This document shows, piece after piece, positions 16,379-47,893 of a DNA stretch of 64,000 nt. This DNA is from Corallococcus sp. AS-1-6. Its GTDB lineage: Bacteria; Myxococcota; Myxococcia; Myxococcales; Myxococcaceae. The notes beneath the pieces are model-generated. The model had not been told where the DNA came from. It ran no database searches and was given only the letters and a program-made list of their open reading frames with translations. Each line of letters begins with the position of its first letter. The stretch's first letter is position 1. The stretch spans positions 310,001 through 374,000 of the forward strand of contig NZ_JAIQDE010000003.1 of the NCBI RefSeq assembly GCF_020037015.1, in the 5' to 3' direction. Both the position numbers and the translations under genes were made by a program.

Positions 16379-18500
16379 ATGGGTTCTTCCTTGTCGCGTT
16401 CCCTTGAGCTGACGCCCTCGCATTCCACCCTCGTCGAAATCCTGCGGAGCCGGGCCGAGTCGCGGTCCGATCAGCCGCTGTACACCTTCCTGGATGACGC
16501 GGGTCAGGAAGACGGAACGCTGAGCTACGCGGGGCTGGACGCGCGGGCCCGGCGGATCGCGGTGGCGTTGCGGAAGGTGGCGAAGCCGGGCGAGCGCGTG
16601 ATGCTGCTGTATCCGCCCGGCCTGGAGTACGTGGCGGGCTTCTTCGGCTGCCTCTACGCGGGGCTCGTCGCGGTGCCGGCGTATCCGCCGGATCCGATGC
16701 GGCTGGAGCGCACGCTGCCGCGCCTGCGGGCGATCATCCAGGACGCGAGCGCGACGGTGGTGCTCACCACGTCCGGCATCCTGTCCATGACGGAGTTCGT
16801 CTTCGAGCAGGCGCCGGACCTGCGCTCGCTGCACTGGATGGGGACGGACGAGCTCCCGGCGGGGGGCGAGGCGGACTGGACGCCGCCGGCGGTGGACGCG
16901 TCGACGCTGGCGTTCCTCCAGTACACGTCCGGCTCCACGGGCTCGCCCAAGGGCGTGATGCTGAGCCACGGGAACCTGGCGCACAACCTGGCGCTGATCA
17001 CGGACGCGTTCGAGCTGGGCCCCAGCAGCTCGGCCGTCATCTGGCTGCCGCCGTACCACGACATGGGGCTCATCGGCGGCATCCTCACGCCGCTGTACGC
17101 GACGTTCCACGCGGCGCTGATGTCGCCGCTGACGATGCTCAAGAACCCGCGCGTGTGGCTGGAGGCCGTCAGCCGCTACAAGGCCACCATCAGCGGCGGG
17201 CCCAACTTCGCGTTCGACCTGTGCGTGCGGCGCATCCCGGCGGAGGAGCGGCAGGCGCTGGACCTGAGCTCGTGGCGGGTGGCGTTCACCGGAGCGGAGC
17301 CCGTCCGCCCGGCGACGCTGGATCGCTTCGAGCAGGCCTTCGGGCCGCACGGCTTCAAGCGTGAGTTCTTCTTCCCGTGCTACGGCCTGGCGGAGGCGAC
17401 GCTGCTGGTGTCGGGCGGGCGCGTGGAGGCGCCGCCGGTGCGCTGCGCGCTGGATGCCCAGGCGCTGGAGCAGCGCCGGGCGGTGCTGGTGGACGCGGCG
17501 AAGCCGGAGGCGCGCGTCCTGGTGGGCTGCGGCGACGAGCGGCCGGGACACCCCGTGGTCATCGTGGATCCCCAGACGCGCGAGGCGTGCGCGCCCGGCG
17601 GCGTGGGGGAGATCTGGGTGCGCGGCCCCAGCGTGGCGCAGGGCTACTGGAACAAGCCGGAGGCGACGGCGGAGGCGTTCCAGGCTCGCGTGAAGGGCAC
17701 GGACGAAGGGCCGTTCCTGCGCACGGGCGACCTGGGCTTCATGCGGGACGGCGAGCTGTTCGTCACCGGCCGGGCCAAGGATCTGATCATCATCCGCGGC
17801 CGCAACCACTACCCGCAGGACATCGAGCAGACGGTGGAGGAGAGCCACCCCGCGCTGCGCGCCGGCAGCGTCGCGGCGGTGTCCCTGGAGGTGGCGGGCG
17901 AGGAGCGCCTGGTGGTGGTGCAGGAGATCGACCTGCGCAAGGCGGGCAACCTGCGCAAGCAGGTGGACATGGCGGAGGCGGCGGTGAAGGAGATCCGCCA
18001 GCGCGTCGCCGAGCGGCACGAGGTGCAGGTGCACGCCGTGGCGCTGATCGAGCCCGGCAGTATCCCGAAGACCTCCAGCGGGAAGATCCAGCGCCACGCG
18101 TGCAAGGCGCAGTTCCTCGCGGACGAGCTGCGCACGGTGCTGGTGTGGCGCGAGCCGGGGTTCGAGGAGGCGGAGGCGTCGGAGGAGTCCCCGGAGCCCG
18201 CCGCGGCGCCGGTCCGTGAGGACGTGCCGGAGGCCGCCCGGGCCACGCTGACGTGGCTGGTGGAGCGCGTGGCGGAGCAGTTGAAGGTGCCGGCGAAGAC
18301 GGTGGACGTGCGTGAGCCCATCACGCGCTACGGCCTGGACTCGCTGAGCGCGGTGGAGCTGGCGCACGCGGTGGAGAAGGGGCTGGGGATCTCGCTGCCC
18401 ATGGAGCTGCTGCTCCAGGGCCCGAGCCTGGTGGAGCTGGCGAAGCGGGTCACCGCGTCGAAGCAGGAGCCGAAGGCGGCGGCGCTCGCGCCCCGGCCGC
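16379..18500 (+). other. NRPS loading module: fatty acyl-AMP ligase and acyl carrier protein
   Basis: The adenylating domain (residues 1-600) is of the FAAL type: TSGSTGSPKGVMLSH, the hallmark WLPPYHDMGLIGGILTPLY, and the C-terminal GRNHYPQDIE region. FAALs activate a free fatty acid as acyl-AMP and load it onto a carrier without CoA. The ACP follows (about 620-695), with GLDSL and Ser655. The first C domain should therefore join a fatty acid to residue 1, making the product a lipopeptide. Chain length cannot be read from the sequence. Confidence 0.92.

Positions 18501-47893: not shown

What the first reader, a model, noticed from the sequence alone, without database searches (positions are those of the whole stretch)
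16379..47893. One-gene, FAAL-primed NRPS predicted to make an apparently unknown lipononapeptide
All biosynthetic domains for a complete lipopeptide lie in one 10,504-residue protein. Codes read by eye predict acyl-Ala-Ala-Phe-Val-Asp-Phe-Tyr/aromatic-Asn-Thr. I know of no myxobacterial product with this order.
Basis: partly seen in the sequence, partly recalled or inferred. Interest (0 to 1): 0.85.

Follow-up and report, generated by a model that had tools for sequence, protein, structure and literature searches.

The report
Lipopeptide assembly line with dehydrovaline cassette
One giant enzyme in a predatory soil bacterium looks built to make a fatty nine-amino-acid peptide; a hydroxylase gene beside it and one unusual linking domain suggest that its valine is turned into the rare amino acid dehydrovaline, which would be a new member of a known kind of natural product.

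Summary
16379-47893 (+) is one open frame of 10,504 aa with order FAAL-T-(C-A-T)x9-TE. Scripted codes give acyl-Ala-Ala-Phe-Val-Asp-Phe-aromatic-Asn-Thr. Five other genomes of the 16 in the genus set carry the same one-gene synthetase; four keep the order, C. carmarthensis differs at positions 6-7.

A divergent gene (14469-16070, -) encodes a CmlA/FrsH-type diiron beta-hydroxylase. C5, between Val4 and Asp5, is not an ordinary condensation domain: it groups with dehydrating-type (modAA/DHC) domains, follows a GGDSI carrier and has a long linker. In 145 Myxococcales genomes, close relatives of C5 (49-59%) follow Val codes in 26 of 26 readable cases; distant ones follow Thr/Ser in 31 of 33. C4-A4-T4-C5 looks like a transferable valine cassette. 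I predict dehydrovaline at position 4.

What hydroxylates the valine is unsettled. The adjacent CmlA is the only oxygenase recognised beside the synthetase, but its subfamily also sits at 15 loci where no such cassette was seen, 12 with aromatic modules. Ten other Val-DHC clusters have no CmlA in the stretches read.

No product was found in the open papers searched; MIBiG could not be run.

The parts
14469..16070 (-). CmlA/FrsH-type diiron beta-hydroxylase (start probably ATG at 16070; the frame can be read from 16103)
   Evidence: Pfam CmlA_N 294 bits; PDB 8a90 (non-heme diiron monooxygenase; FrsH is my identification) 299 bits and CmlA 279 bits; motifs HSHPDH, GEH and ADS present
16379..47893 (+). 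single-gene NRPS, 10,504 aa
16406..18148 (+). FAAL (fatty acyl-AMP ligase) loading domain
   Evidence: PDB matches to fatty-acid--AMP ligases; NCBIfam FAAL-type models over residues 13-586, below cut-off
18257..18466 (+). acyl carrier domain after the FAAL (GLDSL)
   Evidence: Pfam residues 627-696, weak (24.8 bits); motif at residue 652
18488..21595 (+). module 1, C-A-T, Ala code DLFNNALTY
21638..24748 (+). module 2, C-A-T, Ala-type code DIFNNAFTY
24779..27898 (+). module 3, C-A-T, Phe code DAWTVAAVC
27944..31081 (+). module 4, C-A-T, Val code DALWLGGTF, carrier motif GGDSI (the other eight are GGHS)
   Evidence: nearest outside relatives of C4, A4 and T4 are domains of other Val-DHC modules (in a set rich in such modules)
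31106..32488 (+). C5, dehydrating-type (modAA/DHC) condensation domain, HHAILDG
   Evidence: 27-30% identical to the other eight C domains; best PDB matches McyA C 338 bits and AmbE C 218 bits; groups with other DHC-like domains in a tree
32516..34297 (+). module 5 A-T, Asp code DLTKVGHVG
34340..37465 (+). module 6, C-A-T, Phe code DAWTVAAVC (Asn code in the C. carmarthensis orthologue)
37508..40627 (+). module 7, C-A-T, aromatic code DACTIAAVC (Tyr or other para-substituted Phe likely)
   Evidence: substrate inferred from a Phe-type code with residue 239 Trp to Cys
40670..43819 (+). module 8, C-A-T, Asn code DLTKVGEVG
43862..47029 (+). module 9, C-A-T, Thr code DFWNVGMVH
47087..47836 (+). type I thioesterase
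   Evidence: Pfam Thioesterase 123 bits

Best explanation
A fatty acid is activated by the FAAL, loaded on the first carrier, and extended colinearly by nine modules to acyl-Ala-Ala-Phe-Val-Asp-Phe-Tyr(or other aromatic)-Asn-Thr, released by the thioesterase; with no epimerase domain found the residues should be L. At module 4 a beta-hydroxyl is installed on valine held on the GGDSI carrier T4, most likely by the CmlA-type diiron enzyme encoded next door, and the dehydrating-type C5 removes water and joins the dehydrovalyl chain to Asp5. Predicted product: acyl-Ala-Ala-Phe-dehydroVal-Asp-Phe-Tyr/aromatic-Asn-Thr, probably linear, since the N terminus is acylated and no obvious ring nucleophile is predicted upstream (inference). 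Shown by sequence: domain order, codes, the C5 subtype, the cassette, the hydroxylase gene. Inferred: every chemical step, the substrate of the hydroxylase, the fatty acid and the mode of release.
For: Order and codes. C5 is 27-30% identical to the other eight C domains, which are 45-84% to each other; its best PDB matches are McyA C and AmbE C, whereas the control C6 matches Txo2/Txo1 best and neither McyA nor AmbE is among its 35 matches at E<=1e-30. T4 motif to C5 motif is 208 residues against 191-196 in the other seven junctions; PMC10212144 gives T1-C1 linkers of 74 aa for modAA and 60 for LCL. GGDS carriers precede DHCs, and the AmbE, AlbB and LgnD DHCs are biochemically shown (PMC10880069). 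26 of 26 readable close relatives of C5 follow a Val code, 31 of 33 distant ones Thr/Ser. Cassette C4-A4-T4-C5, 93-96% conserved in G002 although modules 6-7 there are replaced. The CmlA (94-96%) and the C5 (95-98%) orthologues, searched for separately, fall in the same five other genomes. Precedent: cryopeptins, dehydrovaline lipopeptides with a CmlA/FrsH-like CrpA and modified-AA C domains (PMC12181424). CmlA genes also lie within 20 kb of DHC-like domains that follow Val/Ile in G079, G081, G076 and G082; those of G079 and of G076/G082 are on branches apart from the window's (G081's was not in the tree).
Against: The CmlA subfamily of the window (24 rows at 58-100%) has neighbours without this cassette. 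I read 15 loci outside the window group: no Val-DHC was seen in any of the 15 and none of the C domains classified in 14 of them was nearest a DHC reference (L035 has no C domain in the stretch held); 12 of 15 show Phe/Tyr-type codes and 9 of 15 Asp/Asn codes. The closest, G001/G004 (85%), have no Val code in what was read. Ten Val-DHC loci elsewhere have no CmlA in the stretches read, so a Val-DHC does not seem to need an adjacent CmlA. One Thr-DHC (G085) lies 17 kb and another (G107) about 36 kb from a CmlA. CrpA's role in cryopeptins is itself a proposal.
Confidence: 0.45

Rival explanations
1. The neighbouring CmlA enzyme hydroxylates another residue (an aromatic one, most likely position 7 or 3, or Asp5/Asn8), which stays as a beta-hydroxy residue; valine 4 is hydroxylated by an enzyme acting in trans and then dehydrated by C5, so the product carries both changes.
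For: The CmlA subfamily is shared by loci in which no Val-DHC was seen (15 of 15 read outside the window group) and that have Phe/Tyr-type modules in 12 of 15 and Asp/Asn in 9 of 15; G001 shares Asp, a DACTIAA(I/V)C code, Asn and Thr with the window but shows no Val code. Ten Val-DHC loci have no CmlA in the stretches read; G105 has two Val-DHCs, no TauD match (E<=1e-10), no P450 match (E<=1e-15) and one CmlA about 145 kb away. The name-giving CmlA acts on an aromatic substrate (recalled).
Against: Aromatic modules also occur in Val-DHC clusters without CmlA, so sharing them is weak evidence. In G002 T7 is only 71% and A7 80% identical while T4 is 96% and CmlA 94%, which fits T4 better than T7 as the conserved partner. 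No trans hydroxylase is known to me.
Confidence: 0.3
2. C5 works as an ordinary condensation domain and the product is the plain acyl nonapeptide, with the CmlA enzyme adding one hydroxyl or nothing.
For: In the ten other Val-DHC clusters sampled, a TauD dioxygenase (G112) was the only hydroxylase type recognised among the flanking genes that I scanned, with further TauD genes about 13 kb away in G114 and 28 kb in G111; LgnD-C2 can condense without dehydrating when the donor is on the wrong carrier (PMC10880069).
Against: A whole group of DHC-like domains keeps following Val on GGDS carriers and C5 is under purifying selection; in the tree the other eight C domains fall among ordinary C domains, apart from C5.
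Confidence: 0.2
3. The locus is an assembly artefact or a decayed cluster.
For: Giant repeated genes are prone to misassembly; the own assembly has 82 contigs.
Against: The same frame of about 10.5 thousand residues is present in three single-contig genomes (G003, G013, G014), with the same flanking genes where the stretches reach them.
Confidence: 0.03

Closest known systems
Cryopeptins (crp cluster, Pedobacter cryoconitis; PMC12181424, passages)
   Same: Lipopeptide with dehydrovaline; CmlA/FrsH-like enzyme (CrpA) plus modified-AA C domains, proposed to make dehydrovaline via hydroxyvaline
   Different: Two NRPS genes with a starter C domain instead of a FAAL; penta/heptapeptides Phe-Dhv-Arg-Dhv-Leu; a different phylum. 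No crp locus was recognised among the six CmlA-bearing loci that I fetched from that family, so no direct comparison
Myxovalargin (mxv cluster, Corallococcus/Pyxidicoccus; PMC9853869, passages and its biosynthesis section)
   Same: Myxobacterial NRPS; dehydro residues and hydroxyvaline proposed to be formed by MxvH; C domains after the dehydro residues fall in the DHC group (PMC10880069)
   Different: A longer peptide from five NRPS genes, isovaleryl starter, C-domain release with agmatine; the family of MxvH is not stated in the text that I read
FR900359 / FrsH and chloramphenicol / CmlA
   Same: Same enzyme family as 14469-16070
   Different: Different substrates and assembly lines; no dehydration of the hydroxylated residue (recalled)
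AmbE, AlbB, LgnD dehydrating C domains (PMC10880069, passages)
   Same: C-domain subtype (AmbE compared) and GGDS-type carrier upstream
   Different: They act on a Glu derivative, Ser or Thr; in the passages read none is shown for valine

Membership tests
FAAL-primed lipopeptide NRPS | FAAL and carrier upstream of the first C-A-T module | tested here: met
   NCBIfam FAAL models below cut-off
FAAL-primed lipopeptide NRPS | ATP-dependent loading of a fatty acid without CoA | not testable with these tools
   needs an assay
Dehydrating (modAA/DHC) C domain | Groups with DHC-like domains, apart from LCL, DCL and E domains | tested here: met
   tree of 58 C domains: wC5 with four Val/Ile-type DHC-like domains 98/92, apart from DCL, LCL and E domains; biochemically proven DHCs were not in the tree, AmbE was only compared by PDB search
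Dehydrating (modAA/DHC) C domain | GGDS-type carrier upstream | tested here: met
   GGDSI at T4, GGHS at the other eight
Dehydrating (modAA/DHC) C domain | Eliminates water from a beta-hydroxy residue | not testable with these tools
   needs an assay; the predicted residue is Val, which first needs a hydroxyl
CmlA-type diiron beta-hydroxylase | CmlA_N domain plus beta-lactamase-fold domain with metal motif | tested here: met
CmlA-type diiron beta-hydroxylase | Hydroxylates a carrier-bound residue; which one | tested here: inconclusive
   comparative data split between Val4 and aromatic/Asx
Known MIBiG product cluster | Matching domain order and product | not tested
   MIBiG not available; literature searches only

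The most novel reading that the evidence does not exclude
A valine-specific branch of dehydrating C domains, moved between synthetases as a C-A-T-C cassette, is widespread in Myxococcaceae and is served by CmlA-type hydroxylases either in the cluster or in trans, so that dehydrovaline is a common but unrecognised residue of myxobacterial peptides; the window product is one of them.
Probability: 0.25. Interest if true: 0.65.

Novelty: new member of a known kind. Interest (0 to 1): 0.45.

Why it matters
It sharpens a vague 'unknown lipopeptide' into a testable structure with a mass signature (Val minus 2 Da at position 4) and points to five further genomes with the same gene, three of them single-contig. 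It also suggests a rule for Myxococcales genomes: DHC-like domains near this one predict dehydrovaline, distant ones predict dehydrated Thr/Ser. And it poses a clear open question: which enzyme hydroxylates valine in the Val-DHC clusters with no hydroxylase seen beside them.

Tried and rejected
Considered and dropped: (1) C5 as E or dual E/C domain: it lies apart from E and from DCL domains in the tree; no proven dual E/C domain was in the tree. (2) CmlA-Val4 as proven: weakened by the company that the CmlA subfamily keeps. (3) Dehydrating domains after aromatic modules in the CmlA subfamily's loci, which would have joined the two readings: none of the C domains classified in 14 loci was nearest a DHC reference; in G078 and G080 a Phe module on a GGDSI carrier is followed by a DCL-type domain with no E domain seen. 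The atypical last domain of G010/G099/G061 was read by eye. (4) A positive control with the cryopeptin locus: the six CmlA loci found in 301 genomes of the Mucilaginibacter family were fetched, none recognisable as crp; one (G443) has a DHC-like C after an Asn/Asp-type code with CmlA beside it. (5) TauD or P450 as the common valine hydroxylase: of 24 genomes searched, TauD lies about 13 kb from the Val-DHC in G112 and G114 and about 28 kb in G111; the P450 list was cut, so absence was judged only for G105, whose row shows none. (6) MbtH: two matches in the genome, neither on the window's contig. (7) Structure prediction was not used.

Limits of the counts: the order search for C5 scored at most 11 candidates per genome, so DHC-like domains may be missed. 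One search covers the 63 rows outside the window group: 30 at 49-59% (26 readable, 4 cut by contig ends) and 33 at 35-43% (24 Thr; 7 Ser, two of which share one module; 2 aliphatic, G076 and G082). Related genomes are not independent and many contigs are short, so missing neighbours may be lost to contig ends. Distances between genes were read by eye. The domain set was built largely from Val-DHC and CmlA loci, which favours such best hits. The references include the window's own C domains. The ten Val-DHC loci were read up to 20 kb on each side, with their middles partly unread.

Full report
CHECK. The open frame, its length and its coordinates are as stated. Pfam, in three overlapping pieces, gives nine condensation stretches, the amino-acid adenylation domains preceded by a ligase, carrier domains and one thioesterase. 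The loading ligase is FAAL-like: its PDB matches at E<=1e-50 include FadD32, FadD23 and FadD28; in NCBIfam FAAL-type models score high but below cut-off and one general fatty-acid--CoA ligase model is over its cut-off. Position 7 (DACTIAAVC) is a Phe-type pocket with Cys in place of Trp; Tyr is the likely choice but not settled. DLTKVGHVG is reported for both Asp and Asn, mostly Asp (PMC12283262, passages).

GENOME AND RELATIVES. The genome has 112 condensation-domain matches. The same single-gene synthetase was found in six of the sixteen genus genomes, the host included; in the other ten neither a CmlA at 94% or more nor a C5 at 95% or more turned up. Identity over the full length: G003 97%, G013 97%, G005 96%, G014 94%, G002 87%, with the same flanking genes where the stretches reach them. 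In G002 modules 6-7 differ: C6 67%, T5 70%, T7 71%, with an Asn code at 6 and DAATVAAVC at 7.

The divergent neighbour is a CmlA/FrsH-type diiron hydroxylase with its metal motif present. C5 is the odd C domain: 27-30% to the other eight, which are 45-84% to each other. Its best solved relatives are the C domains of McyA and AmbE; a control with C6 gives other C domains first and neither of these at E<=1e-30. Its upstream carrier is GGDSI, and the distance from carrier motif to C motif is 12-17 residues longer than at the other seven junctions. A review reports that DHCs follow GGDSx carriers, that the AmbE, AlbB and LgnD DHCs are biochemically characterised, and that C domains after the dehydro residues of myxovalargin group with them (PMC10880069, passages and section 3.4). 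The modAA linker is reported as 74 aa against 60 for LCL (PMC10212144, passages).

THE VALINE CASSETTE. I searched 145 Myxococcales genomes for C5-like domains (44 genomes with a match at E<=1e-60, at most 11 candidates scored per genome) and read the A code just upstream in the 63 rows outside the window group. Of 30 at 49-59% identity, 26 are readable and all 26 follow DA(L/F)WLGGTF, a Val code, with GGDS carriers. Of 33 at 35-43%, 24 follow Thr, 7 Ser and 2 an aliphatic code (G076, G082). The nearest outside relatives of C4, A4, T4 and C5 among the domains held are from Val-DHC modules (the set is rich in them), and in a tree C4 groups with the C domains that precede Val-DHC in G079 and G099 (100/100). 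So C4-A4-T4-C5 looks like a unit that was moved in as a block. The host has a second Val-DHC cluster at G000:C5.

WHO HYDROXYLATES VALINE? Dehydration of valine needs a beta-hydroxyl. In the window group the CmlA gene is the only oxygenase recognised next to the synthetase (several neighbours have no Pfam match). CmlA genes also lie within 20 kb of Val/Ile-type DHCs in G079, G081, G076 and G082, on other branches of the family where placed, against one of 31 Thr/Ser rows (G085, 17 kb). That, with the cryopeptin precedent (PMC12181424, passages), supports CmlA acting on Val4. Against it, the CmlA subfamily of the window (24 rows at 58-100% identity; the other rows listed at 41% or less) mostly keeps other company. 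I read 21 of these 24 neighbourhoods: six are the window group; in the other 15 no Val-DHC was seen, Phe/Tyr-type codes were seen in 12 and Asp/Asn codes in 9, and no C domain classified was nearest a DHC reference in the 14 with readable C domains; several stretches are cut by contig ends. And ten Val-DHC loci elsewhere show no CmlA in the stretches read; G112 has a TauD dioxygenase there. G105 carries two Val-DHCs, no TauD or P450 match at the thresholds used, and one CmlA about 145 kb away. A trans-acting hydroxylase is therefore a live option.

KNOWN OR NEW. As a system this is a member of a known kind: FAAL-primed lipopeptide synthetase with a dehydrating-type C domain and a CmlA-type enzyme. 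A product with this order was not found in the open papers searched (capped listings; six papers seen in part: PMC9853869, PMC10880069, PMC10212144, PMC12181424, PMC12283262, PMC12224551). Products published outside this library could match. The cryopeptin authors already proposed the same route to dehydrovaline, so the chemistry is not a new idea; the cassette and its Val versus Thr/Ser split across Myxococcales is what this work adds.

CONFIDENCE. Domain order and residues: about 0.85. A dehydrovaline at position 4 by any hydroxylase: about 0.65. The adjacent CmlA being that hydroxylase: about 0.45.

Noticed in passing
G000:C5:204391-232534 (L091, L136, L137): A second NRPS cluster of the host with a FAAL-type start and a Val-DHC module, with a glycosyltransferase and a penicillin amidase gene beside it, but no CmlA in the stretches read.
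   Followed up: partly
L058:18412-19998 and L059:1586-3988 (G000:C1:276411): The host's second CmlA-type gene (38% identical to the window's), with similar genes in most Corallococcus genomes examined, lies near a YcaO gene; no frame with two or more NRPS domains was seen in the 38 kb around it.
   Followed up: partly
L060-L062, L063 (G001, G004): C. exercitus-group FAAL-primed NRPS with an 85% identical CmlA but a different order: Asp-E, DACTIAAIC, DASKVAAVC-E, DALHLGCLF, DASKIAAVC-E, DALHLGCLF, Asn, Thr and a terminal C domain (the later part seen in G001 only).
   Followed up: partly
L064-L067 (G016, Pyxidicoccus caerfyrddinensis) and L180-L183 (G111, G106): Another FAAL-primed NRPS family flanked by two CmlA-type genes of different branches.
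   Followed up: no
L056, L185, L194: Synthetases that end in A(DAWTTAAIC)-GGDSL carrier plus an atypical C-like domain, followed at once by a CmlA gene; release mode unclear.
   Followed up: no
L191 (G080) and L192 (G078): A Phe-type module on a GGDSI carrier followed by a DCL-type C domain with no E domain seen.
   Followed up: no
L198-L199 (G443, family of Mucilaginibacter): A DHC-like C domain after an Asn/Asp-type code (DLTKIGEVG, GGDSI carrier) with a CmlA gene nearby: possible dehydro-Asx.
   Followed up: no
window 56129-58718 (+): RecA-like gene followed by a Y-family polymerase-like gene (Pfam RecA, IMS), resembling an ImuA-ImuB pair (name recalled).
   Followed up: no
window 1-1205 (+): C-terminal part of a MutL-type gene at the window edge.
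   Followed up: no
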